This document shows positions 31,067 through 63,582 of a stretch of 64,000 nucleotides of DNA, in pieces. Origin of the DNA: Pempheris klunzingeri (Eukaryota > Chordata > Actinopteri > Acropomatiformes > Pempheridae). Location of the stretch: positions 20,743,415-20,807,414 of the forward strand of contig NC_092032.1 of assembly GCF_042242105.1 (NCBI RefSeq), written 5' to 3'. A program made the position numbers and the translations under genes. The first letter of the stretch is position 1, and each line of letters opens with the position of its first letter. The notes under the pieces were generated by a model. The model was not told the DNA's origin. It ran no database searches and saw only the letters and a list, made by a program, of their open reading frames with translations.

Positions 31067-34000
31067 TTAAACTTTAGTTTGGGGCCAGTTTCTCCTGATC
31101 CAGATCAAGCTCCTAAAAACAGGGTGTCATGTGCTGTAAACATTGTGAAGCATGTTTGGGGAAAATGTAGAGTTAGTGATGTTCGGCTCTATAAATGAAA
31201 CTGACTTGACTACTAACAGTGTTTAGTACCTCAGAGTCTCCAGTCTGCAGTCTGGACTCTCCACAAGATCAGACAGCAGCTTCACTCCTGAATCCTGCAG
31301 CTCGTTTCCTCTCAGCTCCAGATCTCTCAGATGGGAGGGGTTGGACTTCAGAGCTGAGGCCAGAGGAGCACAGCTGACCTCTGACAGACTGCAGCCACTC
31401 AATCTGAATAAAGAATAAATGATGGAGCTAAAAATCCATATAAAATGCAGTCAGAAGTGTTGAGGGTTTGAATCTGCAGCTCAGCATCACTGTGTCCTCA
31501 TCAATGAGCTTTTCCCTAAAAGGAGCAGAGAGACTTTCTCATTGTGTTACTGTGGATCAGCATCATGTCGACCTTCTACGGACAAATAACCATTAATAAC
31601 ATGCTGCTGATCTCAGTCAGGTCTGGAAGATCAATACTTTTCTGGTCTGAAGGATCAATATGGTTGATCAGACGTCGATCAGCACATTGGAACAGAAGTA
31701 GGAACATTTCTGCTTCAGGAGGTAAACGTGATCCATTTAAAAACAGATAATGATTCAGGGGATCTTCTGAATGTAGATGTGACCATTTACCAATAATTCT
31801 GAGCATGAACTCACTTTAACCACCAACAGAGGACATTTTCTACACTTTCTTCAACAAACACAGATCTGTTGTGGCTGCACACTGAATTTAATCCAGGAAA
31901 CATGAAAATATGAACAAGAGGATATTTACATCTTTAAGGTTGTTAGTTATATATGAAGAGAAATGAGGTTCAGTTGTTAACTGAACACATCAGATCTACA
32001 ATAGTGACAGAGAGTCAGTGAACTGACCTCAGAGTCTCCAGTCTGCAGTCTGGACTCTCCAGAAAACCACACAGCAGCTTCACTCCTGAATCCTGCAGCT
32101 TGTTCTCACTCAGCTGCAGATCTCTCAGATGGGAGGGGTTGGACTTCAGAGCTGAGACCAGAGGAGCACAGCTGACCTCTGACAGACTGCAGCGCCTCAA
32201 TCTGAATAAAGAATAAATGATGGAGACAAACATTCATTCATAATATGAGCTTTTCCCTAAAAGGAGCAGAGAGACTTTCTCATAGTTACTGTGGATCAGC
32301 ATCATGTCCACCTTCTACAGACATCATCCAAATGTCAGCACAACATTCAGACACCTATTGATGATCAATAACATGCTGCTGATCTCAGTCAGGTCTGGAA
32401 TCAGAGGATCAGTTCTACATTGGTCCTTTAAACAGCTGCATTTAGAAACAGGCTCTGATCTCTGAGAGTCCCTCTATATATGAGTGAGTGTGTTCTGAAG
32501 ATCAATGTCAGTGATCAGACATTATTGGTGAACACACTGAAATCAACAGAACCCAAAGAAATGTTTCTACTTCAGTGAGTAAACTTGATCAGTTTAAAAC
32601 AGATATTAGTTCAGAGGTTCTTCTGGATTCAGATGTGACCATTTACCAACAATTCTAAACATTCATTCCCTTTAAAACTAAGAGAGAACATTTCCTACAC
32701 TTTCTTCAAGAAGCACAAACCTGTTGTGACTGCTCACTCAACTCAGAAAGGAAATGTACAACTTCATGCATCTTAGTTATATATGAAGAGAAATGAGGTT
32801 CAGTTGTTAACTGAACACATCAGATCTACAATAGTGACAGAGAGTCAGTGAACTGACCTCAGAGTCTCCAGTCTGCAGTCTGGACTCTCCAGAAAACCAC
32901 ACAGCAGCTTCACTCCTGAATCCTGCAGCTTGTTGTTACTCAGCTCCAGATCTCTCAGATGGGAGGGGTTGGACTTCAGAGCTGAGACCAGAGGAGCACA
33001 GCTGACCTCTGACAGACTGCAGCACCTCAATCTGAATAAAGAATAAATGATGTAACTTTAGAAGACGATGTTCACTGAATCATTCAGCGTTTAATAATCA
33101 GCTCAGAGCTGAAGAAGGTTTAGAACGGAGACGTTTAGTAAATCTCCAAACAGCTGAACCCAACAGGATGCAGGTTAAACAGTGTAAAATACAAACAGTG
33201 ACACTGAGCTCTCATTAATATTCATGACAACGTGCTGCTTCTTCAGTAAAGACGCAGTGACGTCACCTCTTCAACTCTGCAGCTCCACCAGTGGCTCCAT
33301 CTCTACAAACTCATGTTGTGCAGCCAAACACAATAAAAACCCTCAGAAACTGATTTAAGATTCGACTCCAGATCCCAAACTTCTGAAAGATGCCAAAGAT
33401 GTCAGGATGGATTTAGAGGAAAAGACACTTTAGCATTAACATACTGAGTGTGGTTCAGTATCACCAGTTTAATAATAGCAAGAATAATAATAATAATTTC
33501 ACAAGTTTAACGTCACCACAACCTTCACATCATATTAATCTGAGCACAGAAGTCAAACGTGGTGTTTAGTACCTCAGAGTCTCCAGTCTGCAGTCTGGAC
33601 TCTCCAGAAAACCACACAGCAGCTTCACTCCTGAATCCTGCAGCTTGTTGTGACTCAGCTCCAGATCTCTCAGATGGGAGGGGTTGGACTTCAGAGCTGA
33701 GACCAGAGGAGCACAGCTGACCTCTGACAGACTGCAGCACCACAATCTGAATAAAGAATAAATGATGGAGCTAAAAATCCATATAAAATGCAGTCAGAAG
33801 TGTTGAGGGTTTGAATCTGCAGCTCAGCATCACTGTGTCCTCATCAATGAGCTTTTCCCTAAAAGGAGCAGAGAGACTTTCTCATTGTGTTACTGTGGAT
33901 CAGCATCATGTCGACCTTCTACGGACAAAAAACCATTAATAACATGCTGCTGATCTCAGTCAGGTCTGGAAGATCAATACTTTTCTGGTCTGAAGGATCA

Positions 34001-37000
34001 ATATGGTTGATCAGACGTCGATCAGCACATTGGAACAGAAGTAGGAACATTTCTGCTTCAGGAGGTAAACGTGATCCATTTAAAAACAGATGATGATTCA
34101 GGGGATCTTCTGAATGTAGATGTGACCATTTACCAATAATTCTGAGCATGAACTCACTTTAACCACCAACAGAGGACATTTTCTACACTTTCTTCAACAA
34201 ACACAGATCTGTTGTGGCTGCACACTGAATTTAATCCAGGAAACATGAAAATATGAACAAGAGGATATTTACATCTTTAAGGTTGTTAGTTATATATGAA
34301 GAGAAATGAGGTTCAGTTGTTAACTGAACACATCAGATCTACAATAGTGACAGAGAGTCAGTGAACTGACCTCAGAGTCTCCAGTCTGCAGTCTGGACTC
34401 TCCAGAAAACCACACAGCAGCTTCACTCCTGAATCCTGCAGCTTGTTGTCACTCAGCTCCAGATCTCTCAGATGGGAGGGGTTGGACTTCAGAGCTGAGA
34501 CCAGAGGAGCACAGCTGACCTCTGACAGTCTGCAGTCCTTCAATCTGAATAAAGAATAAATGATGTAACTTTAGAAGACGATGTTCAGTGAATCATTCAG
34601 CGTTTAATAATCAGCTCAGAGCTGAAGAAGGTTTAGAACGGAGACGTTTAGTAAATCTCCAAACAGCTGAAGCCAACAGGATGCAGGTTAAACAGTGTAA
34701 AATACAAACAGTGACACTGAGCTCTCATTAATATTCATGACAACGTGCTGCTTCTTCAGTAAAGACGCAGTGACGTCACCTCTTCAACTCTGCAGCTCCA
34801 CCAGTGGCTCCATCTCTACAAACTCATGTTGTGCAGCCAAACACAATAAAAACTCTCAGAAACTGATTTAAGATTCGACTCCAGATCCCAAACTTCTGAT
34901 AGATGCCAAAGATGTCAGGATGGATTTAGAGGAAAAGACACTTTAGCATTAACATACTGAGTGTGGTTCAGTATCCCCAGTTTAATAACAGTAACTAGAA
35001 ACAGTTCCTGAATAACTGCAGTGTGAATGCTGCTCTGCTTCCATCTGGTGGCTCAAACGTCACTAATGAGCTGCTGCTCATCAGCTGTCACTCTGTGCTC
35101 ACACGCAGCTCTTTTCATTGAGATTTCTTGAGATTGAGATCCAGGTTTTACTCAGAACGGTACGTGTCGCGGCCATAACGTGTGGCCCAGTGGAGAGAAG
35201 AGGGTCTGCTGAACACGTACATGTAGTTTGAGGTCTCTACCTTTAAAATGAGAGAACTGGAGCAGGTTAGAAAAGTCTTAGTTTCTGCCTCCCTCCTCAA
35301 CTTTCAGCTCTCACTTAACATGGCGGTCAATGAGGCAGTCGGTCGGCACTCCCGTCGCTCCGAGGCTCGTAGCGGGAGCTGCGTACGTTTCTGCGTGTTC
35401 TGAGTCACATCGCTGTGTCGGCAAGGATTTTCCCGACGTTTTGATGCACAAATGGTGAGTGTGAGTGACACACTGAGGGCGTGAGAGCGTTTTAAAGACA
35501 ACATTTCCAGGCGAACTTTCCGCTCCACATACACACTCATTATAAAATGTGAGAAGGAGGGAAAACGGCACAAAACTAAAACTGTGATCTTGTCAAAACA
35601 GTAGATCACAGAGCTGAACCGACACCACCGTGAGCAGCAGGAGACTCTGCTGAAGATGAAGATGTGTCATTTGTTTGGACAAAGTTGAAAAATGACCTCA
35701 ATGTCACAGTTTTAAAAGTCCAAACTTTGTGGGTTTGGTCAAAGATTTCAGAGCCAAAATAACATTAGAGTGAATGAGGGGGTTGAAGTGGTTTCCTGGT
35801 GCTTTGGGGCCGAAAGTTCAAAAACCGTGAGTCCGACAGCTGAAATGGTCACAGGCTCTTAAAGAAGACACATTTCTCTACGTTTTGATGTATAAATTGT
35901 GTAGAAAAAGTTGAAGGTGTCGACGTTAAAAGGGCTGAAGAGAGAAAATTGTTGAAGAAGCACAAAGGCTGAGTAGCAGCAGGTGGTGACATCACTGATG
36001 ACATCACCCACTCTAGGCAGCGCAATACACACTCATTATAAAATGTGAGAAGGAGGGAAAACGGCACAAAACTAAAACTGTGATTTCGTCAAAACCGTAA
36101 AAGATATCAAAAAGCTGAATGATGTGGAAACAGCTGAATGTCTTGTGACCTGTTTAACAGTTGAATGGAGTCTCTAGCTGAAAGTATGAGGGAGCTATAA
36201 GCTTTCTAAGTGGAGGAAGTTGAAGAGAATTTGAAAATTCCTCCCAAAAAGTTCAGTTTTAAAGAAAAGTTTAAATATTGTAAAAAGTTTCAAAGGTAGA
36301 ATTGTGAAAAGTCAAAGCTCCCTAGAGACCGACGAGCTGAACACTTTGATGTTGGAACCGTTTCTGTAGCTCAAAGTGTGGAGCAGTTGAAACGCTGCAA
36401 TGAAGAATAAAACAGGATATCAATAGTGTGAATGCTGCAACACAGCATTCACACTATTGATTTCACAAGTTTAACGTCACCACAACCTTCACATCATATT
36501 AATCTGAGCACAGAAGTCAAACCTGGTGTTTAGTACCTCAGAGTCTCCAGTCTGCAGTCTGGACTCTCCAGAAAACCACACAGCAGCTTCACTCCTGAAT
36601 CCTGCAGCTCGTTCTGACTCAGCTGCAGATCTCTCAGATGGGAGGGGTTGGACTTCAGAGCTGAGGCCAGAGGAGCACAGCTGACCTCTGACAGACTGCA
36701 GCGCCTCAATCTGAATAAAGAATAAATGATGGAGACAAACATTCATTCATAATATGAGCTTTTCCCTAAAAGGAGCAGAGAGACTTTCTCATAGTTACTG
36801 TGGATCAGCATCATGTCCACCTTCTACAGACATCATCCAAATGTCAGCACAACATTCAGACACCTATTGATGATCAATAACATGCTGCTGATCTCAGTCA
36901 GGTCTGGAATCAGAGGATCAGTTCTACATTGGTCCTTTAAACAGCTGCATTTAGAAACAGGCTCTGATCTCTGAGAGTCCCTCTATATATGAGTGAGTGT

Positions 37001-40000
37001 GTTCTGAAGATCAATGTCAGTGATCAGACATTATTGGTGAACACACTGAAATCAACAGAAACCAAAGAAATGTTTCTACTTCAGTCAGTAAACTTGATCA
37101 GTTTAAAACAGATATTAGTTCAGAGGTTCTTCTGGATTCAGATGTGACCATTTACCAACAATTCTAAACATTCATTCCCTTTAAAACTAAGAGAGAACAT
37201 TTCCTACACTTTCTTCAAGAAGCACAAACCTGTTGTGACTGCTCACTCAACTCAGAAAGGAAATGAACAACTTCATGCATCTTAGTTATATATGAAGAGA
37301 AATGAGGTTCAGTTGTTAACTGAACACATCAGATCTACAATAGTGACAGAGAGTCAGTGAACTGACCTCAGAGTCTCCAGTCTGCAGTCTGGACTCTCCA
37401 GAAAACCACACAGCAGCTTCACTCCTGAATCCTGCAGCTTGTTTCCACTCAGCTCCAGATCTCTCAGATGGGAGGGGTTGGACTTCAGAGCTGAGAGCAG
37501 ATGAGCACAGCTGACCTCTGACAGACTGCAGTCCTTCAATCTGAATAAAGAATAAATGATGTAACTTTAGAAGACGATGTTCACTGAATCATTCAGCGTT
37601 TAATAATCAGCTCAGAGCTGAAGAAGGTTTAGAACGGAGACGTTTAGTAAATCTCCAAACAGCTGAACCCAACAGGATGCAGGTTAAACAGTGTAAAATA
37701 CAAACAGTGACACTGAGCTCTCATTAATATTCATGACAACGTGCTGCTTCTTCAGTAAAGACGCAGTGACGTCACCTCTTCAACTCTGCAGCTCCACCAG
37801 TGGCTCCATCTCTACAAACTCATGTTGTGCAGCCAAACACAATAAAAACCCTCAGAAACTGATTTAAGATTCGACTCCAGATCCCAAACTTCTGAAAGAT
37901 GCCAAAGAACAAAAGTCATCTCCAATATTTCTGTTAGGAACAGTGGAGTCATAAAATCACAGCTTCTTCAGTTTAAACTCTTCAGTCACTAGAAGCATCA
38001 TAAAGCTTCAGAAACATGTTGGAAAAAGAAAATCCTGAATATATTTGTTATTGTCTGATAGTTGAAACAGAGATTATTGATCTGTTCTTTGTATGCATGT
38101 CTTTTTTATTACCACTTATTTAAACCATGACGGGAACATGAGATGAAAATCAGCTGTTTAAGAGGTTCAGAGTGAATCCTTCTGTGCACATTGATCTTTA
38201 TTACAGTTTGAAATGTGCAGCTCAACATTTCTCTGCTGCAGACAATGGACTAAACCACTGAAGAAGAAAGCAGACTGAAACAAGCTTTTATGGTCTTTTA
38301 ATGCATCTTCTCTTCAGCTTGAACTGTTTATGTTCTTGTGCTTTTATCATCTTTTACCTGCAGTTTAATGTCTTGTTTCTATTGTGCTTTCTGTCCCTGG
38401 AAGCACTTTGAATTGTGTAGCTGCCATTGAAGTCAGCTTTGTAACTGAAGTTCATTTAATTACTTTTGAGTTAAAAACAGGAATGATTTAGTTAATAAAT
38501 AGATGTTTTGTTGTTTTATATAAATAAGTTTAAAGGATTCAGAAACACACAATGGTGAATATTGTAGAAAAGGGAACCTTTCTGTTTACCTTGTTGGGGT
38601 CAGGTCAGTTTTTGTAGACGCACTATATCAATCACCACATGAAGCGACGCAGTGATTGTAATGGATGCTGGAAAACATCCACCTTCAAAAGACATGTTAA
38701 TGATGAGTCTGACAGGATGAAGCTTGCACTCAAAGCAGTCCTTAAAGATGTAGCAGGGACTGGGTCAGGACAGCACCTGGTAGACTGACTGTCATTCAAC
38801 AGTCTATATAATTGTTGATCAGGTGTAGTGGTGAACATCGACCTGTTTCTGCTACGACGACTCATGTTGCTGTCAGCATCTAAGACAATGGCTGCTCTAC
38901 CTGAGGTGATGTTGTTGTTAAAGAACATTTAAAATCCCTCACATCCAGTTGAAGATATTTGGCTCAGGCCTTCACTGACAGAGGCAGGACTGAGATACCG
39001 GTGTATGGAAATGAGCTCCTCTTACATCTTCACTGACTGAAGGACCAAACAGTGACTCTGTGGAAGCTGCACAACCGTCCTGTCAAACACTCCATTTATC
39101 ACCTTTTTCTCACAAATGTTCAGCTATTTGGAACAAAGAGATCATTTCTGAAGAAACTTCTTCAGGTGTTTAAAGTGATGAACTACTATGATAAATTCAT
39201 GAACTGACCGCAGAGTCTCCAGTCCACAGTTTGGACTCTCTAGTCCAGCAGACAGCTGCTTCACTCCAGACTCTTTCAGCTGATTAAGACTCAGCTCCAG
39301 CTCTCTCAGATGGGAGGGGCTGGACTTCAGAGCTGAGGCCACGATTTCATAGTGACTCTCTGAGAGAGAACAGCCAGACAGCCTGTCATGAAACAGAAAT
39401 TACAAAGCATCATATTATAAAAGAGGACACCTGATATTGATATCATGCATGTGATGACGGAATAGTTTAACATTTCCTGATTGGAGCTTTGCTTTGACAT
39501 CACACCTCTGCAGTGCAGCATTTGTTTTACCAGGGCTGTATGAGGCCTCCATCACCCAAAGGAAGGTAGATAGAAGAACAGCAACAATATTACAATTATT
39601 AGAAATAAGCAGAAGGCTGTGATCATTTATTTGACAGCTAGAAAACAAAACCAACTGAAGAGTCAATGTTTTCTTTTGTTGTCAAAGTATTTGAAACAAC
39701 TCAAGAACAAACAGATCACTATTTTAAGAACTTACCGAACTTTTCTGCAGTTCCTGACAGCTGGAATCAGCCTCCGTCGTCCCTCCTCTGATGTGTTGTA
39801 CTTCTCCAGGTCAAACTCATCCAGAACCTCCTCTGACATCTGCAGCATGTAGGCCAGAGCTGAGCAGTGGATCTCTGAGAGTTCCTTCTCTGATCTGTTC
39901 TCTGACTTCAGGAACTCTTGGATCTCCTGATGGACTGAGTGGTCGTTCATCTCCGTCAGACAGTGGAAGATGTTGATGCTTCTGTCTGGAGAGACTTCGT

Positions 40001-43000
40001 CCGTCTTTCTCCTCTTCAGGTTGTCGATGGCTCTCTGAATGACTTCTGGACTGTTGTCTGTCTGACCCAGCAGGCCTCCTAAGATCCTCTGGTTGGACTC
40101 CACAGAGAGGCCATGAAGGAAGCGGACAAACAGGTCCAGGTGACCATTTTCACTTTTAAAGGATTTCATCATGGCTCTCTTCAAGAAGACATCCAGGGAT
40201 GAGTAATGGTCAATGTCATCATCATCATCATCTTCATCATCCCAATCTTCCAGGAATGAGTCACACTTATCTTCCAGGAATGAGTGATCCCTACCTCCCA
40301 GGAAGTCCTTCAGCACCTCTGTGTTCCTGTTGGTGTAACAGTGGAACATGTAGACTGCAGCCAGAAACTCCTGAACGCTCAGGTGAACGAAGCAGTAGAC
40401 CGTTTTCTGGAAGATCACACTCTCTCTTTTGAAGATCTCGGTACAAACTCCTGAGTACACCGAGGCCTCTGTGGCGTCCAGACCGACCTGCTCCAGGTCT
40501 TCCTGGTAGAACATGATGTTTCCTTTCTGCAGATGTTCAAACGCCAGCCTCCCCAGCTTCAGGAGAACGTCCCCGTCAGCCTCCATCAGCTCCTGTGGAC
40601 TCGTCTCATGTCCCCCCTCGTACTTGTGCTTCTTCCTCTTTGTCTGAACCAGCAGGAAGTGTGAGTACAGGTCAGTCAGGGTCTTGGGCAGCTCTCCTCT
40701 CTGGTCTGTAGTCAACATGTGCTCCAGAACTGTGGCAGTGATCCAGCAGAAGACTGGGATCTGACACATGATGTGGAGGCTCCTGGAGGCCTTGACATGT
40801 GAGATGATCCTGCTGGACAGATCTTCATCACTGACTCTCCTCCTGAAGTACTCCTCCTTCTGGGCGTCAGTGAAGCCTCGTACCTCTGTTACCCTGTCAA
40901 CACATGCAGGAGGGATCTGATTGGCTGCTGCAGGTCGGGAAGTGATCCAGACGAGAGCCGCTGGAAGCAGATTCCCCTTGATGAGGTTTGTCAGCAGCAC
41001 GTTGACCGACGACTTCTGGGTGACGTCAGAAACGACCTCCTCGTTGTTGAAATCCAGTGACAGTCTGCTTTCATCCAGGCCGTCAAAGATGAACAACAGT
41101 TTACAGACGGCGAGCTTCTCTGCGGTGACCTTCTGTAACGTTGGATGGAAAACATGGAGCAGCCTGAGAAGACTGAGCTGCTCGTCTCTGATCAGGTTCA
41201 GCTCCCTGAACGAAAGCAGAACCACCAGACTGACATCTTGGTTTTCCAAACCCTCCGCCCAGTCCAGAGTGAACTTCTGCACTGAGAAGGTTTTTCCGAC
41301 GCCGGCGACGCCATTCGTCAGAGCGACTCTGATGGGTGTCTGTTGGTGAGGTAAGGCTTTAAAGATGTCCTGGCACTTGATTGGAGCGTCATGGAGGGTC
41401 TTCTTCTTGGAAGTCGTCTCCAGCTGCCTCACCTCATGTTGGGTATTAACCTCTTCGCTCTGCCCCTCTGTGATGAAGAGCTCAGTGTAGATCCTGTTGA
41501 GGAGGGTTCCACTTCCTGCTTCATCACTTCCTGCTTCATCACTTCCTGCTTCATCACTTCCTTCAGTCACACGTTCACATCTCCTCCTCAGGCTGATCTT
41601 ATGTTCATCTAGAACCTCCTGCAGACCACCATTCACTAAAAAAGAGAAAAAGATTGAAACAAAGCAAAGACAGTTTGACGATGTGCTGGTTGTTTTCATG
41701 ACCCATAAAAATGATGAATATAAGAAAATGAATAAAGTCCACTTTTGGAGTTTTTCCCTTGTTTCCAGTGTCTCTCCTTGTCTGGGTTTGTGTATTGTGT
41801 AGCTCCTTTGCTCACTCTCCCTGCTGAACACCTGTGCTCACCTGTTCCTGGCCTGTTACTGTGTTCCCTTGTGCCTCAGGATAACCCTTCAGCTGCCTTT
41901 CTGTCCTCCTGCTTGCATCCAACGCTTGTGCAGCTCCAGCCTGCTCACAGCATCCACTCTAACTACTTTGTCCTCTGCCATCACCAGCCATTCACCTCTC
42001 AGATTCATCTTATGACTGAAGCTCATGTAGTTATGGTCAGTCACTGCCTATGTACATGTCTTTTGTTTGTCCTCCACCATAGTGTTTTAGCCCGGAGCCC
42101 TTTCTTCACCCAGGAGCTGGTGCAGCTTCTTGTTCAGGACCATTGTGCCTGGATTACTCCAACTCGCTCCTGGCTGCTCAGCCTGCACGATCCATCTGAC
42201 CTCTGAAGCTCATCCAGAATGCAGCAGCCGGCTGGTTTCAACCTTTCCAAGTTCTCCCACACAACACAGCTCCTCTGCAACCTGGACTGGCGACCGTTGG
42301 CCGATTCAAGTCCCTTGTACTTGCATATTGTGCTGCCAATGGGTCACGCTCGTACTATTTCCAGAACATGATAAAACCAGACCCCCCAGCCCATCCACTG
42401 TGCCCTGATGATTGGGGTGCTACTCCCTTACTATCTTCAGATCTGAATATTGACTTCTGTCTGAGTCAGGCATCATTAATGTAGTCTATCTGAGTTCTAC
42501 TACACTGTAAAGAGGACCTCCTTGTCTTTCTAGTGATTATACACACATGGGGTTCTGTTGTTTCAAAAGGGCAGGAACAGAAAAATAACCTGTTTTAAGG
42601 CAGTGAGTTGTTTAAGTGATGACATTTATAAAGAAGTATTTCTGTTCTCCATCAGGATGTTGTTATATTTGATGAGGATGGAGAGAGCCGGGCAGTAGAG
42701 CAGCTTTTACATTTAGTTTTGTTTGTTTCCAAAATTCATAATTTTAAATGTGATTACTGTTAAAGTGTATTGTTTTATCATTGATAGATTGCTGCTTGTA
42801 ATGTTCTCTTTGTGGAAAAGACTGACAACGTTCACTACAAGGAATATTTCACTAAAAATTTCATCTTTGAGAAAAAGTCTTTTGATATGTTTTACATCCC
42901 AACTGCTTAAATGATGTAAATTATATTCAAAACCTTTTTTTCCTCCAGGTCTGAGGAGGATATGAGGGGGGACCAAGCTACTGCTCAACAAACTCAGAAA

Positions 43001-52319: not shown

Positions 52320-52325
52320 TTTATT
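52320..52325 (-). terminator. Poly(A) signal of NLR copy B
   Basis: Minus-strand AATAAA 44 nt past the proposed stop (52371-52369), as in copy A. Confidence 0.6.
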
Positions 52326-52368
52326 GTGTCTGCTGCTCTTCCTCAGGTTTCTTTGATTTGTTTCCCCG

Positions 52369-55300
52369 TTAAACTTTAGTTTGGGGCCAGTTTCTCCTGA
52401 TCCAGATCAAGCTCCTAAAAACAGGGTGTCGTGTGCTGTAAAGACTGTGAAGCATGTTTGGGGAAAATGTAGAGTTAGTGATGTTCGGCTCTATAAATGA
52501 AACTGACTTGACTACTAACAGTGTTTAGTACCTCAGAGTCTCCAGTCTGCAGTCTGGACTCTCCACAAGATCAGACAGCAGCTTCACTCCTGAATCCTGC
52601 AGCTTGTTGTCACTCAGCTGCAGCTCTCTCAGATGGGAGGGGTTGGACTTCAGAGCTGAGGCCAGAGGAGCACAGCTGACCTCTGACAGACTGCACCACA
52701 TCAATCTGAATAAAGAATAAATGATGGAGCTAAAAATCCATATAAAATGCAGTCAGAAGTGTTGAGGGTTTGAATCTGCAGCTCAGCATCACTGTGTCCT
52801 CATCAATGAGCTTTTCCCTAAAAGGAGCAGAGAGACTTTCTCATTGTGTTACTGTGGATCAGCATCATGTCGACCTTCTACGGACAAATAACCATTAATA
52901 ACATGCTGCTGATCTCAGTCAGGTCTGGAAGATCAATACTTTTCTGGTCTGAAGGATCAATATGGTTGATCAGACGTCGATCAGCACATTGGAACAGAAG
53001 TAGGAACATTTCTGCTTCAGGAGGTAAACGTGATCCATTTAAAAACAGATAATGATTCAGGGGATCTTCTGAATGTAGATGTGACCATTTACCAATAATT
53101 CTGAGCATGAACTCACTTTAACCACCAACAGAGGACATTTTCTACACTTTCTTCAACAAACACAGATCTGTTGTGGCTGCACACTGAATTTAATCCAGGA
53201 AACATGAAAATATGAACAAGAGGATATTTACATCTTTAAGGTTGTTAGTTATATATGAAGAGAAATGAGGTTCAGTTGTTAACTGAACACATCAGATCTA
53301 CAATAGTGACAGAGAGTCAGTGAACTGACCTCAGAGTCTCCAGTCTGCAGTCTGGACTCTCCAGAAAACCACACAGCAGCTTCACTCCTGAATCCTGCAG
53401 CTCGTTTCCAAACAGCTCCAGCTCTCTCAGATGGGAGGGGTTGGACTTCAGAGCTGAGGCCAGAGGAGCACAGCTGACCTCTGACAGACTGCAGCACCAC
53501 AATCTGAGTAAAGAATAAATGATGGAGACAAACATTCATTCATAATATGAGCTTTTCCCTAAAAGGAGCAGAGAGACTTTCTCATAGTTACTGTGGATCA
53601 GCATCATGTCCACCTTCTACAGACATCATCCAAATGTCAGCACAACATTCAGACACCTATTGATGATCAATAACATGCTGCTGATCTCAGTCAGGTCTGG
53701 AATCAGAGGATCAGTTCTACATTGGTCCTTTAAACAGCTGCATTTAGAAACAGGCTCTGATCTCTGAGAGTCCCTCTATATATGAGTGTGTGTGTTCTGA
53801 AGATCAATGTCAGTGATCAGACATTATTGGTGAACACACTGAAATCAACAGAACCCAAAGAAATGTTTCTACTTCAGTGAGTAAACTTGATCAGTTTAAA
53901 ACAGATATTAGTTCAGAGGTTCTTCTGGATTCAGATGTGACCATTTACCAACAATTCTAAACATTCATTCCCTTTAAAACTAAGAGAGAACATTTCCTAC
54001 ACTTTCTTCAAGAAGCACAAACCTGTTGTGACTGCTCACTCAACTCAGAAAGGAAATGAACAACTTCATGCATCTTAGTTATATATGAAGAGAAATGAGG
54101 TTCAGTTGTTAACTGAACACATCAGATCTACAATAGTGACAGAGAGTCAGTGAACTGACCTCAGAGTCTCCAGTCTGCAGTCTGGACTCTCCAGAAAACC
54201 ACACAGCAGCTTCACTCCTGAATCCTGCAGCTTGTTGTCACTCAGCTGCAGCTCTCTCAGATGGGAGGGGTTGGACTTCAGAGCTGAGGCCAGAGGAGCA
54301 CAGCTGACCTCTGACAGACTGCAGGACCTCAGTCTGAATAAAGAATAAATGATGTAACTTTAGAAGACGATGTTCATTGAAATCATTCAGCGTTTAATAA
54401 TCAGCTCAGAGCTGAAGAAGGTTTAGAACGGAGACGTTTAGTAAATCTCCAAACAGCTGAAGCCAACAGGATGCAGGTTAAACAGTGTAAAATATAAACA
54501 GTGACACTGAGCTCTCATTAATATTCATGACAACGTGCTGCTTCTTCAGTAAAGACGCAGTGACGTCACCTCTTCAACTCTGCAGCTCCACCAGTGGCTC
54601 CATCTCTACAAACTCATGTTGTGCAGCCAAACACAATAAAAACCCTCAGAAACTGATTTAAGATTCGACTCCAGATCCCAAACTTCTGAAAGATGCCAAA
54701 GATGTCAGGATGGATTTAGAGGAAAAGACACTTTAGCATTAACATACTGAGTGTGGTTCAGTATCACCAGTTTAATAATAGCAATAATAATAATAATAAT
54801 TTCAGAAGTTTAACGTCACCACAACCTTCACATCATATTAATCTGAGCACAGAAGTCAAACCTGGTGTTTAGTACCTCAGAGTCTCCAGTCTGCAGTCTG
54901 GACTCTCCAGAAAACCACACAGCAGCTTCACTCCTGAATCCTGCAGCTTGTTGTGACTCAGCTCCAGATCTCTCAGATGGGAGGGGTTGGACTTCAGAGC
55001 TGAGGCCAGAGGAGCACAGCTGACCTCTGACAGACTGCAGCACCACAATCTGAATAAAGAATAAATGATGGAGCTAAAAATCCATATAAAATGCAGTCAG
55101 AAGTGTTGAGGGTTTGAATCTGCAGCTCAGCATCACTGTGTCCTCATCAATGAGCTTTTCCCTAAAAGGAGCAGAGAGACTTTCTCATTGTGTTACTGTG
55201 GATCAGCATCATGTCGACCTTCTACGGACAAATAACCATTAATAACATGCTGCTGATCTCAGTCAGGTCTGGAAGATCAATACTTTTCTGGTCTGAAGGA

Positions 55301-58300
55301 TCAATATGGTTGATCAGACGTCGATCAGCACATTGGAACAGAAGTAGGAACATTTCTGCTTCAGGAGGTAAACGTGATCCATTTAAAAACAGATAATGAT
55401 TCAGGGGATCTTCTGAATGTAGATGTGACCATTTACCAATAATTCTGAGCATGAACTCACTTTAACCACCAACAGAGGACATTTTCTACACTTTCTTCAA
55501 CAAACACAGATCTGTTGTGGCTGCACACTGAATTTAATCCAGGAAACATGAAAATATGAACAAGAGGATATTTACATCTTTAAGGTTGTTAGTTATATAT
55601 GAAGAGAAATGAGGTTCAGTTGTTAACTGAACACATCAGATCTACAATAGTGACAGAGAGTCAGTGAACTGACCTCAGAGTCTCCAGTCTGCAGTCTGGA
55701 CTCTCCAGAAAACCACACAGCAGCTTCACTCCTGAATCCTGCAGCTTGTTGTCACTCAGCTCCAGATCTCTCAGATGGGAGGGGTTGGACTTCAGAGCTG
55801 AGACCAGAGGAGCACAGCTGACCTCTGACAGACTGCAGTCCATCAATCTGAATAAAGAATAAATGATGTAACTTTAGAAGACGATGTTCACTGAATCATT
55901 CAGCGTTTAATAATCAGCTCAGAGCTGAAGAAGGTTTAGAACGGAGACGTTTAGTAAATCTCCAAACAGCTGAAGCCAACAGGATGCAGGTTAAACAGTG
56001 TAAAATACAAACAGTGACACTGAGCTCTCATTAATATTCATGACAACGTGCTGCTTCTTCAGTAAAGACGCAGTGACGTCACCTCTTCAACTCTGCAGCT
56101 CCACCAGTGGCTCCATCTCTACAAACTCATGTTGTGCAGCCAAACACAATAAAAACCCTCAGAAACTGATTTAAGATTCGACTCCAGATCCCAAACTTCT
56201 GAAAGATGCCAAAGATGTCAGGATGGATTTAGAGGAAAAGACACTTTAGCATTAACATACTGAGTGTGGTTCAGTATCCCCAGTTTAATAACAGTAACTA
56301 GAAACAGTTCCTGAATAACTGCAGTGTGAATGCTGCTCTGCTTCCATCTGGTGGCTCAAACGTCACTAATGAGCTGCTGCTCATCAGCTGTCACTCTGTG
56401 CTCACACGCAGCTCTTTTCATTGAGATTTCTTGAGATTGAGATCCAGGTTTTACTCAGAACGGTACGTGTCGCGGCCATAACGTGTGGCCCAGTGGAGAG
56501 AAGAGGGTCTGCTGAACACGTACATGTAGTTTGAGGTCTCTACCTTTAAAATGAGAGAACTGGAGCAGGTTAGAAAAGTCTTAGTTTCTGCCTCCCTCCT
56601 CAACTTTCAGCTCTCACTTAACATGGCGGTCAATGAGGCAGTCGGTCGGCACTCCCGTCGCTCCGAGGCTCGTAGCGGGAGCTGCGTACGTTTCTGCGTG
56701 TTCTGAGTCACATCGCTGCGTCGGCAAGGATTTTCCCGACGTTTTGATGCACAAATGGTGAGTGTGAGTGACACACTGAGGGCGTGAGAGCGTTTTAAAG
56801 ACAACATTTCCAGGCGAACTTTCCGCTCCACATACACACTCATTATAAAATGTGAGAAGGAGGGAAAACGGCACAAAACTAAAACTGTGATCTTGTCAAA
56901 ACAGTAGATCACAGAGCTGAACCGACACCACCGTGAGCAGCAGGAGACTCTGCTGAAGATGAAGATGTGTCATTTGTTTGGACAAAGTTGAAAAATGACC
57001 TCAATGTCACAGTTTTAAAAGTCCAAACTTTGTGGGTTTGGTCAAAGATTTCAGAGCCAAAATAACATTAGAGTGAATGAGGGGGTTGAAGTGGTTTCCT
57101 GGTGCTTTGGGGCCGAAAGTTCAAAAACCGTGAGTCCGACAGCTGAAATGGTCACAGGCTCTTAAAGAAGACACATTTCTCTACGTTTTGATGTATAAAT
57201 TGTGTAGAAAAAGTTGAAGGTGTCGACGTTAAAAGGGCTGAAGAGAGAAAATTGTTGAAGAAGCACAAAGGCTGAGTAGCAGCAGGTGGTGACATCACTG
57301 ATGACATCACCCACTCTAGGCAGCGCAATACACACTCATTATAAAATGTGAGAAGGAGGGAAAACGGCACAAAACTAAAACTGTGATTTCGTCAAAACCG
57401 TAAAAGATATCAAAAAGCTGAATGATGTGGAAACAGCTGAAGGTCTTGTGACCTGTTTAACAGTTGAATGGAGTCTCTAGCTGAAAGTATGAGGGAGCTA
57501 TAAGCTTTCTAAGTGGAGGAAGTTGAAGAGAATTTGAAAATTCCTCCCAAAAAGTTCAGTTTTAAAGAAAAGTTTAAATATTGTAAAAAGTTTCAAAGGT
57601 AGAATTGTGAAAAGTCAAAGCTCCCTAGAGACCGACGAGCTGAACACTTTGATGTTGGAACCGTTTCTGTAGCTCAAAGTGTGGAGCAGTTGAAACGCTG
57701 CAATGAAGAATAAAACAGGATATCAATAGTGTGAATGCTGCAACACAGCATTCACACTATTGATTTCACAAGTTTAACGTCACCACAACCTTCACATCAT
57801 ATAAATCTGAGCACGGAAGTCAAACCTGGTGTTTAGTACCTCAGAGTCTCCAGTCTGCAGTCTGGACTCTCCAGAAAACCACACAGCAGCTTCACTCCTG
57901 AATCCTGCAGCTTGTTCTTACTCAGCTCCAGATCTCTCAGATGGGAGGGGTTGGACTTCAGAGCTGAGACCAGAGGAGCACAGCTGACCTCTGACAGACT
58001 GCAGCACATCAATCTGAATAAAGAATAAATGATGTAACTTTAGAAGACGATGTTCACTGAATCATTCAGCGTTTAATAATCAGCTCAGAGCTGAAGAAGG
58101 TTTAGAACGGAGACGTTTAGTAAATCTCCAAACAGCTGAACCCAACAGGATGCAGGTTAAACAGTGTAAAATACAAACAGTGACACTGAGCTCTCATTAA
58201 TATTCATGACAACGTGCTGCTTCTTCAGTAAAGACGCAGTGACGTCACCTCTTCAACTCTGCAGCTCCACCAGTGGCTCCATCTCTACAAACTCATGTTG

Positions 58301-61300
58301 TGCAGCCAAACACAATAAAAACCCTCAGAAACTGATTTAAGATTCGACTCCAGATCCCAAACTTCTGAAAGATGCCAAAGATGTCAGGATGGATTTAGAG
58401 GAAAAGACACTTTAGCAGTAACATACTGAGTGTGGTTCAGTATCACCAGTTTAATAATAGCAAGAATAATAATAATAATAATAATAATTTCACAAGTTTA
58501 ACGTCACCACAACCTTCACATCATATTAATCTGAGCACAGAAGTCAAACGTGGTGTTTAGTACCTCAGAGTCTCCAGTCTGCAGTCTGGACTCTCCAGAA
58601 AACCACACAGCAGCTTCACTCCTGAATCCTGCAGCTTGTTCACACTCAGCTCCAGATCTCTCAGATGGGAGGGGTTGGACTTCAGAGCTGAGACCAGAGG
58701 AGCACAGCTGACCTCTGACAGTCTGCAGTCCTTCAATCTGAATAAAGAATAAATGATGGAGACAAACATTCATTCATAATATGAGCTTTTCCCTAAAAGG
58801 AGCAGAGAGACTTTCTCATAGTTACTGTGGATCAGCATCATGTCCACCTTCTACAGACATCATCCAAATGTCAGCACAACATTCAGACACCTATTGATGA
58901 TCAATAACATGCTGCTGATCTCAGTCAGGTCTGGAATCAGAGGATCAGTTCTACATTGGTCCTTTAAACAGCTGCATTTAGAAACAGGCTCTGATCTCTG
59001 AGAGTCCCTCTATATATGAGTGAGTGTGTTCTGAAGATCAATGTCAGTGATCAGACATTATTGGTGAACACACTGAAATCAACAGAAACCAAAGAAATGT
59101 TTCTACTTCAGTGAGTAAACTTGATCAGTTTAAAACAGATATTAGTTCAGAGGTTCTTCTGGATTCAGATGTGACCATTTACCAACAATTCTAAACATTC
59201 ATTCCCTTTAAAACTAAGAGAGAACATTTCCTACACTTTCTTCAAGAAGCACAAACCTGTTGTGACTGCTCACTCAACTCAGAAAGGAAACGAACAACTT
59301 CATGCATCTTAGTTATATATGAAGAGAAATGAGGTTCAGTTGTTAACTGAACACATCAGATCTACAATAGTGACAGAGAGTCAGTGAACTGACCTCAGAG
59401 TCTCCAGTCTGCAGTCTGGACTCTCCAGAAAACCACACAGCAGCTTCACTCCTGAATCCTGCAGCTTGTTGTTACTCAGGTCCAGCTCTCTCAGATGGGA
59501 GGGGTTGGACTTCAGAGCTGAGACCAGAGGAGCACAGCTGACCTCTGACAGACTGCAGCACCTCAATCTGAATAAAGAATAAATGATGTAACTTTAGAAG
59601 ACGATGTTCAGTGAAATCATTCAGCGTTTAATAATCAGCTCAGAGCTGAAGAAGGTTTAGAACGGAGACGTTTAGTAAATCTCCAAACAGCTGAACCCAA
59701 CAGGATGCAGGTTAAACAGTGTAAAATACAAACAGTGACACTGAGCTCTCATTAATATTCATGACAACGTGCTGCTTCTTCAGTAAAGACGCAGTGACGT
59801 CACCTCTTCAACTCTGCAGCTCCACCAGTGGCTCCATCTCTACAAACTCATGTTGTGCAGCCAAACACAATAAAAACCCTCAGAAACTGATTTAAGATTC
59901 GACTCCAGATCCCAAACTTCTGAAAGATGCCAAAGAACAAAAGTCATCTCCAATATTTCTGTTAGGAACAGTGGAGTCATAAAATCACAGCTTCTTCAGT
60001 TTAAACTCTTCAGTCACTAGAAGCATCATAAAGCTTCAGAAACATGTTGGAAAAAGAAAATCCTGAATACATTTGTTATTGTCTGATAGTTGAAACAGAG
60101 ATTATTGATCTGTTCTTTGTATGCATGTCTTTTTTATTACCACTTATTTAAACCATGACGGGAACATGAGATGAAAATCAGCTGTTTAAGAGGTTCAGAG
60201 TGAATCCTTCTGTGCACATTGATCTTTATTACAGTTTGAAATGTGCAGCTCAACATTTCTCTGCTGCAGACAATGGACTAAACCACTGAAGAAGAAAACA
60301 GACTGAAACATGCTTTTATGGTCTTTTAATGCATCTTCTCTTCAGCTTGAACTGTTTATGTTCTTGTGCTTTTATCATCTTTTACCTGCAGTTTAATGTC
60401 TTGTTTCTATTGTGCTTTCTGTCCCTGGAAGCACTTTGAATTGTGTAGCTGCCATTGAAGTCAGCTTTGTAACTGAAGTTCATTTAATTACTTTTGAGTT
60501 AAAAACAGGAATGATTTAGTTAATAAATAGATGTTTTGTTGTTTTATATAAATAAGTTTAAAGGATTCAGAAACACACAATGGTGAATATTGTAGAAAAG
60601 GGAACCTTTCTGTTTACCTTGTTGGGGTCAGGTCAGTTTTTGTAGACGCACTATATCAATCACCACATGAAGCGACGCAGTGATTGTAATGGATGCTGGA
60701 AAACATCCACCTTAAAAAGACATGTTAATGATGAGTCTGACAGGGTGAAGCTTGCACTCAAAGCAGTCCTTAAAGATGTAGCAGGGACTGGGTCAGGACA
60801 GCACCTGGTAGACTGACTGTCATTCAACAGTCTATATAATTGTTGATCAGGTGTAGTGGTGAACATCGACCTGTTTCTGCTACGACGACTCATGTTGCTG
60901 TCAGCATCTAAGACAATGGCTGCTCTACCTGAGGTGATGTTGTTGTTAAAGAACATTTAAAATCCCTCACATCCAGTTGAAGATATTTGGCTCAGGCCTT
61001 CACTGACAGAGGCAGGACTGAGATACCGGTGTATGGAAATGAGCTCCTCTTACATCTTCACTGACTGAAGGACCAAACAGTGACTCTGTGGAAGCTGCAC
61101 AACCGTCCTGTCAAACACTCCATTTATCACCTTTTTCTCACAAATGTTCAGCTATTTGGAACAAAGAGATCATTTCTGAAGAAACTTCTTCAGGTGTTTA
61201 AAGTGATGAACTACTATGATAAATTCATGAACTGACCGCAGAGTCTCCAGTCCACAGTTTGGACTCTCTAGTCCAGCAGACAGCTGCTTCACTCCAGACT

Positions 61301-63582
61301 CTTTCTGCTGATTAAGACTCAGCTCCAGCTCTCTCAGATGGGAGGGGCTGGACTTCAGAGCTGAGGCAACGATTTCATAGTGACTCTCTGAGAGAGAACA
61401 GCCAGACAGCCTGTCATGAAACAGAAATTACAAAGCATCATATTATAAAAGAGGACACCTGATATTGATATCATGCATGTGATGATGAAATAGTTTAACA
61501 TTTCCTGATTGGAGCTTTGCTTTGACATCACACCTCTGCAGTGCAGCATTTGTTTTACCAGGGCTGTATGAGGCCTCCATCACCCAAAGGAAGGTAGATA
61601 GAAGAACAGCAACAATATTACAATTATTAGAAATAAGCAGAAGGCTGTGATCATTTATTTGACAGCTAGAAAACAAAACCAACTGAAGAGTCAATGTTTT
61701 CTGTTGTTGTCAAAGTATTTGAAACAACTCAAGAACAAACAGATCACTATTTTAAGAACTTACCGAACTTTTCTGCAGTTCCTCACAGCTGGAATCAGCC
61801 TCCGTCGTCCCTCCTCTGATGTGTTGTACTTCTCCAGGTCAAACTCCTCCAGAACCTCCTCTGACATCTGCAGCATGTAGGCCAGAGCTGAGCAGTGGAT
61901 CTGTGAGAGCTTCTTCTTTAATCTCTTCCCTGACTTCAGGAACTCTTGGATCTCCTGATGGACTGAGTGGTTGTTCATCTCCGTCAGACAGTGGAAGATG
62001 TTGATGCTTCTGTCTGGAGAGACTTCGTCCGTCTTTCTCCTCTTCAGGGTGTTGATGGCTCTCTGAATGACTTCTGGACTGTTGTCTGTCCGACCCAGCA
62101 GGCCTCCTAAGAGTCTCTGGTTGGACTCCACAGAGAGGCCATGAAGGAAGCGGACAAACAGGTCCAGGTGGCCATTTTTGCTTTGAAGGGATCTCTCCAT
62201 GGCTCTCTTCAAGAAGACATCCAGGGATGAGTGATCCCTACCTCCCAGGAAGTCCTTCAGCACCTCTGTGTTCCTGTTGGTGTAACAGTGGAACATGTAG
62301 ACTGCAGCCAGAAACTCCTGAACGCTCAGGTGAACGAAGCAGTAGACTGTTTTCTGGAAGATCACACTCTCTCTTTTGAAGATCTCGGTACAAACTCCTG
62401 AGTACACCGAGGCCTCTGTGGCGTCCAGACCGACCTGCTCCAGGTCTTCCTGGTAGAACATGATGTTTCCTTTCTGCAGCTGTTCAAACGCCAGCCTCCC
62501 CAGCTTCAGGAGAACGTCCCCGTCAGCCTCCATCAGCTCCTGTGGACTCGTCTCATGTCCCCCCTCGTACTTCTGCTTCTTCCTCTTTGTCTGAACCAGC
62601 AGGAAGTGTGAGTACAGGTCAGTCAGGGTCTTGGGCAGCTCTCCTCTCTGGTCTGTAGTCAACATGTGCTCCAGAACTGTGGCAGTGATCCAGCAGAAGA
62701 CTGGGATCAGACACATGATGTGGAGGCTCCTGGAGGCCTTGATGTGTGAGATGATCCTGCTGGACAGATCTTCATCACTGACTCTCCTCCTGAAGTACTC
62801 CTCCTTCTGGGCGTCAGTGAAGCCTCGTACCTCTGTTACCCTGTCAACACATGCAGGAGGGATCTGATTGGCTGCTGCAGGTCTGGAAGTGATCCAGACA
62901 AGAGCCGCTGGAAGCAGATTCCCCTTGATGAGGTTTATCAGCAGCACGTTGACCGACGACTTCTGGGTGACGTCAGAAACGACCTCCTTGTTGCTGAAAT
63001 CCAGTGACAGTCTGCTTTCATCCAGGCCGTCAAAGATGAACAACAGTTTACAGACGGCGAGCTTCTCTGCGGTGACCTTCTGTAACGTTGGATGGAAAAC
63101 ATGGAGCAGCCTGAGAAGACTGAGCTGCTCGTCTCTGATCAGGTTCAGCTCCCTGAACGAAAGCAGAACCACCAGACTGACATCTTGGTTTTCCAAACCC
63201 TCCGCCCAGTCCAGAGTGAACTTCTGCACTGAGAAGGTTTTTCCGACACCGGCGACGCCGTTCGTCAGAGCGACTCTAATGGGTGTCTGTTGGTGAGGTA
63301 AGGCTTTAAAGATGTCCTGGCACTTGATTGGAGCGTCATGGAGGCTCTTCTTCTTGGAAGTCGTCTCCAGCTGCCTCACCTCATGTTGGGTATTAACCTC
63401 TTCGCTCTGCCCCTCTGTGATGAAGAGCTCAGTGTAGATCCTGTTGAGGAGGGTTCCACTTCCTGCTTCATCACTTCCTGCTTCATCACTTCCTGCTTCA
63501 TCACTTCCTTCAGTCACACGTTCACATCTCCTCCTCAGGCTGATCTTATGTTCATCTAGAACCTCCTGCAGACCACCATTCA
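52369..63582 (-). CDS. NLR copy B: FISNA-NACHT-LRR protein, 5' exons outside the window
   Basis: Exons in transcript order: 63582-61764 (FISNA-NACHT), then nine 174-nt LRR exons (61410-61237, 59567-59394, 58737-58564, 58013-57840, 55847-55674, 55049-54876, 54333-54160, 53503-53330, 52705-52532) and a tentative last exon 52414-52369. The NACHT exon begins with the split ATG giving [13 protein letters not shown]. It has FISNA ([14 protein letters not shown]), Walker A GVAGVGKT and Walker [12 protein letters not shown]. Compared with copy A it lacks a 27-codon acidic segment (81 bp, in frame) and has one more LRR exon. Its NACHT acceptor is AAG rather than TAG. If the missing RING and N-terminal exons match copy A, the total is 3888 nt, 1295 residues, in frame. 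No disabling mutation is seen. Confidence 0.85.
52532..61410 (-). repeat. LRR exon-intron cassette array of NLR copy B
   Basis: Nine 174-nt phase-2 exons with the same intron types as copy A. Variable beta-strand tetrads in transcript order after the first exon: SNNK, SVNK, SKNK, SDNK, SHNK, SDNK, FGNE, SDNK. The cassette at 57840-58490 has no positional partner in copy A. Confidence 0.92.
56323..57763. mobile_element. About 1.44-kb dispersed element in an NLR copy B intron
   Basis: Duplicate of 35020-36460, including the perfect 17-bp hairpin with loop CAACA (57724-57762). The extra LRR cassette begins directly to its right. Confidence 0.6.

What the first reader, a model, noticed from the sequence alone, without database searches (positions are those of the whole stretch)
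31230..61410. Variation between the two NLR copies is concentrated in LRR beta-strand codons
Copies A and B are near-identical across introns and most exon sequence, yet several positionally matching LRR exons differ in the x residues of L-x-L-x-x-N-x-L: SENK versus FGNE (32028/53330), RGNE versus SDNK (31230/52532), SQNE versus SVNK (36537/58564), SGNK versus SNNK (37367/59394), SNNK versus SDNK (32858/54160). The other hot spot is the residue pair in L-x-x-C-x-LSEVSC (KD, RR, RC, WC, SG, RS, MD, MC, MW). Both map to the concave LRR face that binds ligand in this fold. Such clusters in a young duplication suggest diversifying selection, or shuffling of short tracts among cassettes by gene conversion.
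Basis: partly seen in the sequence, partly recalled or inferred. Interest (0 to 1): 0.75.

Follow-up and report, generated by a model that had tools for sequence, protein, structure and literature searches.

The report
Fish immune receptor with shuffled binding codons
Two neighbouring fish immune-receptor genes are almost identical in their repeat region except at a few codons on its predicted binding surface, which suggests that natural selection and copying of short DNA tracts keep reshuffling what the receptors recognise.

Summary
The window, very probably from Pempheris klunzingeri, holds a head-to-tail tandem duplicate of a RING-FISNA-NACHT-LRR gene (NLR-C, group-6-like, no intact B30.2 found). 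In six clean A/B pairs of LRR exons, x codons of the two LRR motifs differ at 33/198 sites, the rest of the exon at 6/828, introns at 29/7106. All 15 cassettes encode different peptides; 24 of 25 variable columns change the amino acid. Flank-matched pairs outside the window repeat this (15.5%, 0.54%, 0.43%). Among 66 cassettes of one contig 64 proteins are distinct, each x-codon amino acid has one spelling, and front and back residues of internal cassettes pair at random. Both offered explanations probably act together: diversifying selection on a finite palette of states, shuffled by sub-exon gene conversion. The three hottest positions lie mostly in the loop after the strand; two align with ribonuclease-inhibitor hot spots. 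They rank in the top five of 57 in 11 of 12 fish species. In B30.2-bearing fish NLRs LRR variability at these positions is about half as high, with overlap, suggesting that recognition shifted from B30.2 to LRR. Ligand binding is inferred.

The parts
26618..48239 (-). Duplication unit A (gene A with flanks)
   Evidence: Self-BLAST and junction sequence
48240..64000 (-). Duplication unit B; runs on past the window to about window coordinate 70449
44399..44530 (-). Gene A N-terminal peptide exon 1 ([10 protein letters not shown]...)
   Evidence: tblastn with P0012 peptides
43845..43973 (-). Gene A N-terminal peptide exon 2
43154..43357 (-). Gene A RING exon
   Evidence: Pfam zf-C3HC4_4 E 3e-10; 100% to P0012
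39732..41636 (-). Gene A FISNA-NACHT-WH-HD2 exon (open frame; exact splice sites not determined)
   Evidence: Pfam
39209..39382 (-). A1, first LRR exon (non-cassette type)
37367..37540 (-). A2 LRR cassette exon (KD / SGNK)
36537..36710 (-). A3 LRR cassette exon (RR / SQNE); has the 5' flank of B3 and the 3' flank of B3x
34371..34544 (-). A4 LRR cassette exon (KD / SDNK)
33573..33746 (-). A5 LRR cassette exon (WC / SHNK)
32858..33031 (-). A6 LRR cassette exon (RC / SNNK)
32028..32201 (-). A7 LRR cassette exon (RR / SENK)
31230..31403 (-). A8 terminal-type LRR cassette exon (SG / RGNE, SDLV)
31067..31112 (-). Gene A last coding exon ([14 protein letters not shown], stop)
   Evidence: 100% to the C-terminus of P0013; sequence
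30760..30981 (-). Possible B30.2/SPRY relic downstream of the stop codon (weak)
   Evidence: PDB SPRY/B30.2 domains, best E 0.049; no Pfam hit
61760..63583 (-). Gene B FISNA-NACHT-WH-HD2 exon (open frame)
   Evidence: Pfam
61237..61410 (-). B1, first LRR exon (non-cassette type)
59394..59567 (-). B2 LRR cassette exon (RC / SNNK)
58564..58737 (-). B3 LRR cassette exon (KD / SVNK)
57840..58013 (-). B3x LRR cassette exon, extra copy in B (MC / SKNK)
55674..55847 (-). B4 LRR cassette exon (MD / SDNK)
54876..55049 (-). B5 LRR cassette exon (WC / SHNK)
54160..54333 (-). B6 LRR cassette exon (RS / SDNK)
53330..53503 (-). B7 LRR cassette exon (WC / FGNE)
52532..52705 (-). B8 terminal-type LRR cassette exon (MW / SDNK, SDLV)
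52369..52414 (-). Gene B last coding exon ([14 protein letters not shown], stop)

Best explanation
The two copies are recently tandem-duplicated fish NLR-C genes whose LRR domain is built from interchangeable 174-nt cassette exons with a nearly frozen backbone. Shown: divergence between flank-matched cassettes is concentrated at x codons and is mostly replacement-type; the states at these codons come from a small palette, each amino acid spelled by one codon, and combine almost at random. Inferred: gene conversion copies tracts shorter than the exon between cassettes of the array and of paralogues (the exon is the main homology that cassettes with unrelated introns share, so tracts stop at exon edges); diversifying selection keeps replacements at exposed positions at the strand end and in the following loop because they touch a ligand. 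Most speculative step: in this B30.2-less branch the LRR has taken over the recognition role assigned to B30.2 in zebrafish.
For: Six clean A/B pairs: x codons 33/198, rest of exon 6/828, introns 29/7106. Replication with neither member in the window: 35 pairs of 23 cassettes whose 300-nt flanks are each at least 98% identical, x 179/1155, rest 26/4830, introns 90/21000. Control in the same genes: FISNA+NACHT pN 0.006 < pS 0.026. Palette: in 66 cassettes the 11 x codons hold 29 extra amino-acid states and 0 synonymous alternatives; the other 46 codons 10 and 7 (p=0.0004). Shuffling: 29 of 31 A/B codon differences have both states in other cassettes of the contig, 7 of 31 are 2-3-nt changes, the positional partner is the best-sharing exon for only 2 of 12 paired exons, 38 of 66 informative column pairs fail the four-gamete test, and front/back combinations in 55 internal cassettes number 40 against 40.8 (sd 1.9) under random pairing. 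Position: variable positions 1, 2, 4 align with the Tyr-Asp-x-Tyr of ribonuclease inhibitor, hot spots Tyr434, Asp435, Tyr437 confirmed by experiment according to PMC9939524 (passages). Generality: positions 1, 2 and 31 all rank in the top five of 57 in 11 of 12 species, one of them P. klunzingeri.
Against: No ligand, expression or binding data. A Sawyer-type runs test on the 15 window exons is not significant (codon level p=0.48, nucleotide level p=0.07), and association does not fall significantly with distance (Spearman p=0.08 for 66 cassettes, 0.37 for 55 internal ones), so conversion rests on palette, shared states and random pairing, not on a formal tract test. The ratio pN/pS is not higher at x codons than elsewhere (66 cassettes: 2.8 at x codons, 3.3 at the others, 1.8 without codons 43-46); the x-codon pS of 0.07 comes from mutational paths between multi-base codon changes, since no synonymous alternatives exist there, but the replacement excess outside x codons is real. 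No codon-model likelihood test was run. HD2 also diverges (pN 0.044, pS 0.043) and one upstream intron strongly, so larger exchanges occur too. Cassettes of one genome are not independent, and pairs share members.
Confidence: 0.8

Rival explanations
1. Gene conversion alone, without selection at x codons: tracts confined to exons import whatever variation the paralogues hold.
For: Differences are confined to exons and states are shared between cassettes.
Against: It does not explain why the pool of 66 cassettes varies mainly at x codons and there only by replacement (29 extra amino acids, 0 synonymous extras), nor the same hot positions in 11 of 12 species.
Confidence: 0.08
2. Recurrent point mutation with diversifying selection in each cassette, little or no conversion.
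For: Random association between codons fits independent change; the runs test is not significant.
Against: Recurrent mutation should give synonymous spellings of the favoured residues; none at x codons in 66 cassettes. 7 of 31 A/B codon changes need 2-3 substitutions while introns differ by 0.4%.
Confidence: 0.06
3. Copies A and B are two alleles of one locus placed in tandem by the assembler, or the duplication joined two divergent haplotypes, so the differences are balanced polymorphism.
For: Intron divergence of 0.4% is within the range of fish heterozygosity (recalled).
Against: No N in the window, homology ends abruptly at both outer ends, B has one extra cassette; the P. klunzingeri assemblies are described as HiFi/Hi-C and haplotype-phased (PMC12488967, passages). 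Not excluded. The selection argument would survive it, since cassette pairs of other arrays show the same.
Confidence: 0.1
4. Relaxed constraint: x positions are simply neutral while the backbone is strongly conserved.
For: x positions are expected to be solvent-exposed in this fold (general knowledge of RI-like LRRs).
Against: x codons diverge about 40 times faster than adjacent introns; neutrality predicts equality.
Confidence: 0.02

Closest known systems
Round goby / percomorph NLR-C group 6 (PMC6988351, passages)
   Same: Walker A GVAGVGKT, large exon ending [10 protein letters not shown], no PYD and no B30.2 found
   Different: In the passages I read, LRR variability is not discussed; here the LRR cassettes carry the variation, and a RING exon and N-terminal peptide repeats are present
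Zebrafish NLR-B30.2 family (PMC4852459, passages)
   Same: FISNA-NACHT exon, one LRR per exon, gene conversion in the family, a conserved terminal LRR type
   Different: There B30.2 shows signs of positive selection and the LRRs are called not particularly variable; here the LRR is variable and no intact B30.2 was found
Plant highly variable NLRs (PMC8226289, passages)
   Same: High-entropy residues cluster on the LRR surface and are interpreted as binding sites
   Different: Defined on near-allelic series within a species; here on paralogous cassettes in separate exons, with a nearly frozen silent background
Mammalian ribonuclease inhibitor (PDB 1a4y, 1dfj, 4peq)
   Same: RI-like LRR fold; hot-spot residues Tyr434, Asp435, Tyr437 align with variable positions 1, 2, 4
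   Different: Not a diversified receptor family (recalled)
Lamprey variable lymphocyte receptors
   Same: LRR cassettes with variable and fixed members (comparison made by Howe et al. for zebrafish LRRs; further details recalled)
   Different: VLRs are assembled somatically (recalled); nothing here indicates somatic assembly

Membership tests
Fish NLR-C (FISNA-NACHT NLR) | FISNA, NACHT, winged-helix and HD2 in one large exon | tested here: met
   Pfam FISNA E 6e-24, NACHT 3e-28, NOD2_WH 3e-20, NLRC4_HD2 1e-29 in A; similar in B
NLR-C group 6 | Walker A GVAGVGKT | tested here: met
   Both copies read GVAGVGKT; definition from PMC6988351 Table 4
NLR-C group 6 | Large exon ends L(I/V)P(A/V)VRNCRKA | tested here: inconclusive
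   Window reads [10 protein letters not shown] then V, as do P0012 and P0013; the last residue differs
NLR-C group 6 | No PYD, no B30.2 | tested here: met
   The N-terminal exons identified give RING or no Pfam hit, the last coding exon adds only 14 residues, and only a weak SPRY-like stretch lies beyond it; not every reading frame of the locus was scanned
RI-like LRR | Two-repeat 57-58-residue units aligning with ribonuclease inhibitor | tested here: met
   phmmer E 1e-118; Foldseek of the P0013 model to RI chains, TMt 0.82-0.84
Plant-style hvNLR | At least 10 positions of at least 1.5 bits in a near-allelic series | not tested
   No alleles available; in the 15 window cassettes 3 of 57 positions exceed 1.5 bits, which is a different unit
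VLR-like somatic system | Somatic assembly of LRR cassettes into an incomplete germline gene | not testable with these tools
   The germline genes look complete, with splice signals at the cassettes; no somatic DNA or RNA data

The most novel reading that the evidence does not exclude
Spiny-rayed fishes possess a germline combinatorial receptor family: in a B30.2-less branch of NLR-C genes, diversity has moved from the B30.2 domain to the LRR, where a small codon palette at three main positions per cassette is reshuffled by sub-exon gene conversion so fast that front and back residues of a 174-nt exon pair at random across paralogues on one chromosome. Recognition in fish NLRs then sits mainly either in B30.2 or in the LRR.
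Probability: 0.45. Interest if true: 0.83.

Novelty: new variant of a known kind. Interest (0 to 1): 0.72.

Why it matters
[quoted passage not shown] Here the LRR carries the signature expected of a recognition surface, and the contrast between B30.2-bearing and B30.2-less genes makes the question testable with existing genomes. It also names the residues to mutate or to use as baits, and offers a natural system (nearly frozen silent sites, hypervariable codons) for measuring sub-exon gene conversion in a vertebrate.

Tried and rejected
Rejected: relaxed constraint (x codons outrun introns); assembly noise (same pattern in other arrays and species); an intact B30.2 domain downstream (only a weak SPRY-like stretch beyond the stop codon); positional identity of A3 with B3. 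Tried without a positive result: Sawyer-type runs test and decay of association with distance. Not obtained: searches of the window's own genome for the cassette as DNA or protein and for the PRY/B30.2 family (not completed), so B30.2-bearing NLRs of the same genome were not examined, and the 66 cassettes come from the window and ten 10-kb stretches of one contig only. The structure model has confident LRRs (10-residue means of pLDDT about 73-92) but not the rest (mean of the whole model 51).

Dropped rows. A3, B3 and B3x left out of the A/B counts. From 63 cassette-like exons in L021-L030 I used 51; 5 first-LRR-type exons and 7 with other borders or a broken frame were left out. One of 66 cassettes lacked 300-nt flanks (65 used). 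The 64 pairs include 6 pairs inside the window; one search gives the 35 pairs with neither member in it. Cross-species sets are only the best 120 hits of each of three searches; 17 of the 119 new hits (16 TRIM-type or otherwise without NACHT by their Pfam list, and P0243) were dropped. 13 species were labelled for the rank test and 12 had six or more cassettes. 46 of 104 B30.2-bearing and 110 of 238 other proteins gave distinct sets of three or more cassettes; 14 of 46 and 33 of 50 listed species had at least four distinct cassettes. Species were assigned by hand from the hit tables, and some hits were not assigned.

I lowered the main confidence from 0.82 to 0.80 and the probability of the novel case from 0.50 to 0.45 for these.
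Full report
What the locus is. The window lies on a 22,504,404-base contig (C21) of a genome with 645.9 Mb in 439 contigs. That contig length is the one listed for seven of the eight Pempheris klunzingeri proteins among the closest database hits, and the published haplotype 1 of that species is 646.3 Mb in 442 scaffolds (PMC12488967, passages); the species is therefore very probably P. klunzingeri. On the minus strand the window holds a head-to-tail tandem duplication: unit A 26618-48239, unit B from 48240 to about window coordinate 70449. Homology ends abruptly at both outer ends; each unit piece tested has two copies in the 264 kb examined, and the window has no N. The gene model: two N-terminal peptide exons, a RING exon, one FISNA-NACHT-winged helix-HD2 exon, a first LRR exon, 7 (A) or 8 (B) cassette LRR exons and a short last exon ending [14 protein letters not shown]. 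Walker A (GVAGVGKT), the exon end [10 protein letters not shown] and the lack of PYD and B30.2 in the exons found match NLR-C group 6 as defined in the round goby paper (PMC6988351, passages), except that the residue after RNCRK is V instead of A. A weak SPRY-like stretch beyond the stop codon (best E 0.049; no Pfam hit) may be a relic of a lost B30.2 exon.

The observation. The 15 cassette exons are each 174 nt with AG/GT borders and an open frame. They differ at 25 nucleotide columns; the only synonymous one is in codon 0. All 15 encode different peptides. x codons, fixed as the x residues of the two L-x-x-L-x-L-x-x-[N/C]-x-L segments (11 of 57 codons), hold 17 variable columns of 33 sites, the rest 8 of 138 (p=5e-9). 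Three of those 11 (25, 54, 55) do not vary in the window; outside them codons 0, 12, 14 and 43-46 vary.

Exon against intron. In six clean A/B pairs exons differ at 39/1044 sites and introns at 29/7106. By class: x codons 33/198 (16.7%), other exon sites 6/828 (0.7%, not different from introns, p=0.17), introns 0.41%. Synonymous divergence outside a seven-codon x subset is 0.4%, equal to the introns. The NACHT exon of the same pair behaves conventionally: FISNA+NACHT pS 0.026 and pN 0.006; HD2 and tail are equally divergent at both site classes, 0.043 and 0.044.

Replication outside the pair. A FISNA census gave 104 matches in the genome, a lower bound. From ten 10-kb stretches beside other FISNA exons on the same contig (L021-L030) I extracted 63 cassette-like exons and used 51 intact ones of the same type. 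Among the 66 cassettes 64 proteins are distinct. In 35 pairs (23 cassettes, neither in the window) with both 300-nt flanks at least 98% identical without gaps, x codons differ at 179/1155 sites (15.5%), the rest of the exon at 26/4830 (0.54%) and flanking introns at 90/21000 (0.43%). With window cassettes included it is 64 pairs: 16.4%, 0.68%, 0.49%. Three pairs have identical flanks over 600 nt; their x codons differ by 5, 5 and 2 nucleotides. Pairs share members and are not independent.

Against a simple reading. As a ratio, pN/pS is not higher at x codons than elsewhere: 2.8 at x codons (pN 0.200, pS 0.073) and 3.3 at the others (pN 0.021, pS 0.006), or 1.8 without codons 43-46. What sets x codons apart is the tenfold higher level of replacement and the lack of synonymous alternatives; the pS there arises from mutational paths between multi-base changes. 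Codons 12 (P/H) and 14 (V/A/L) may also be under selection or carried along.

How the diversity is made. In the 66 cassettes codon 31 has nine codons for nine amino acids, codon 2 eight for eight, codon 1 five for five; over the 11 x codons there are 29 extra amino-acid states and no synonymous alternative, against 10 and 7 elsewhere (p=0.0004). Each state thus seems to have arisen once and been copied around. 29 of 31 A/B codon differences have both states elsewhere on the contig and 7 of 31 are changes of two or three bases. For only 2 of 12 paired exons is the positional partner the best-sharing exon. B8 is an example: it keeps the terminal-type 3' end (SDLV) and the terminal intron but is identical to B6 over nucleotides 11-131, and B7, an internal exon, carries FGNE, whose five other occurrences in L021-L030 are all on terminal-type exons. 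In 55 internal cassettes, front pairs (codons 1-2) and back pairs (31, 33) form 40 combinations against 40.8 expected at random; association is significant at p<0.01 only for codons 1-2 and 26-28. Against this, a runs test on the window exons was not significant, nor was decay of association with distance. I read the whole as short-tract conversion within exons. The exon with a few bases before it is the main homology shared by cassettes with unrelated introns, so tracts would naturally end at exon borders; this last step is inference.

Where the positions lie. A model of P0013, a P. klunzingeri relative, has confident LRRs (pLDDT about 73-92; the rest is poor) with strands at unit positions 26-28 and 55-57; in one of its five cassette units the second strand runs on to position 1. 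Positions 26 and 28 are therefore in a strand, while 30, 31, 33 and, mostly, 1, 2, 4 follow a strand. The LRR part matches ribonuclease inhibitor chains (TMt 0.82-0.84). In sequence alignments positions 1, 2 and 4 fall on the Tyr-Asp-x-Tyr of that protein, residues 434, 435 and 437 of human RI, described as experimentally confirmed hot spots of the angiogenin complex (PMC9939524, passages).

Other fish. In 12 species with at least six cassettes among the fetched proteins (one of them P. klunzingeri), positions 1, 2 and 31 are the three most variable of 57 in eight, and all within the top five in eleven; Trachinotus anak is the exception. Of 1941 differences between near-identical cassettes of one species (466 pairs), 1352 fall on the seven positions defined from the window and 901 on 1, 2 and 31. 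The position sets came from the window, so for the other species this is an independent test; retrieval by similarity to the backbone may, however, make backbones look more conserved.

B30.2-bearing genes. In fish NLRs that carry B30.2, cassettes of one protein differ moderately more at positions 1, 2, 31 than at background positions (0.317 against 0.182; 46 proteins), while in B30.2-less ones it is 0.770 against 0.154 (110 proteins); background does not differ between groups (p=0.82), the ratio does (p=5e-15). By species: 14 with B30.2, mean 0.40, range 0.00-0.81, background 0.27; 33 without, mean 0.81, range 0.50-0.89, background 0.18 (p=5e-7). The ranges overlap; Chanos, Megalops and Salminus are high with B30.2. 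Also, in 6 of the 11 B30.2-bearing sets shown (Sebastes umbrosus, Tautogolabrus, Merluccius, Brienomyrus, Polymixia, Megalops) positions 1 and 2 are still among the five most variable, so the difference is one of degree. Five species with both classes all go the same way, some with only three cassettes; three do with four or more. The two classes largely follow NLR-C branches (Walker A GVAGVGKT in 193 of 238 B30.2-less and 2 of 104 B30.2-bearing proteins), so this may be one or few evolutionary switches. Howe et al. 2016 (PMC4852459, passages) state that zebrafish NLR-B30.2 LRRs are not particularly variable and that B30.2 acts as the recognition module; the pattern here is the complement.

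Literature. Of nine answered searches of the held open-access library, seven bear on this question (the others, 36 and 51, were for ribonuclease inhibitor and the species). Their listings showed no paper that I recognised as reporting hypervariable LRR positions in fish NLR-C genes. I read passages only, of seven papers; most subscription papers and preprints are not held.

What is shown and what is inferred. Shown: the exon-limited divergence concentrated at x codons and mostly of replacement type, its replication on the contig, the palette, random pairing, and recurrence of the hot positions across species. Inferred: gene conversion as the copying process, diversifying selection by ligands or pathogens, and the change of recognition module. 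Not shown: expression, ligand, population frequency.

Noticed in passing
44399-44530 and 43845-43973, with B counterparts at window coordinates 66588-66719 and 66034-66162 (outside the window): The N-terminal peptide exons show a similar pattern in miniature: A and B proteins differ only in a short run (RLEPLF to KDFPPF; RREPLH to KDKPPY) inside otherwise identical peptides.
   Followed up: partly
42400-43400: The intron between the RING and NACHT exons holds most of 105 A/B SNPs (of 160 in 6255 aligned upstream sites), unlike the near-identical LRR introns; perhaps a larger replacement from another paralogue, or partly forced alignment.
   Followed up: no
39732-40200: The HD2 end of the NACHT exon is about 4% divergent at both site classes, and A carries an 81-nt in-frame acidic stretch that B lacks.
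   Followed up: partly
36537-36710 / 57840-58737: Copy B has one cassette more than A; the breakpoint lies in or next to the A3 exon, consistent with unequal crossing-over between cassettes 724 nt apart.
   Followed up: partly
L021:3738 and L022:5099: One paralogue cassette has an altered frame (L021), and in L022 a terminal-type SDLV exon is followed by further cassettes, as if two arrays were fused.
   Followed up: no
12455-12990: A 12-nt tandem repeat of about 45 copies lies behind a stretch matching the Pfam RIO domain (E 2e-11) on the plus strand.
   Followed up: no
codon 31 of the cassettes: Seven of the nine codons are of the form NA[C/G], the seven non-stop members of that set, and the synonymous NAT and NAA forms do not occur in the 66 cassettes.
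   Followed up: no
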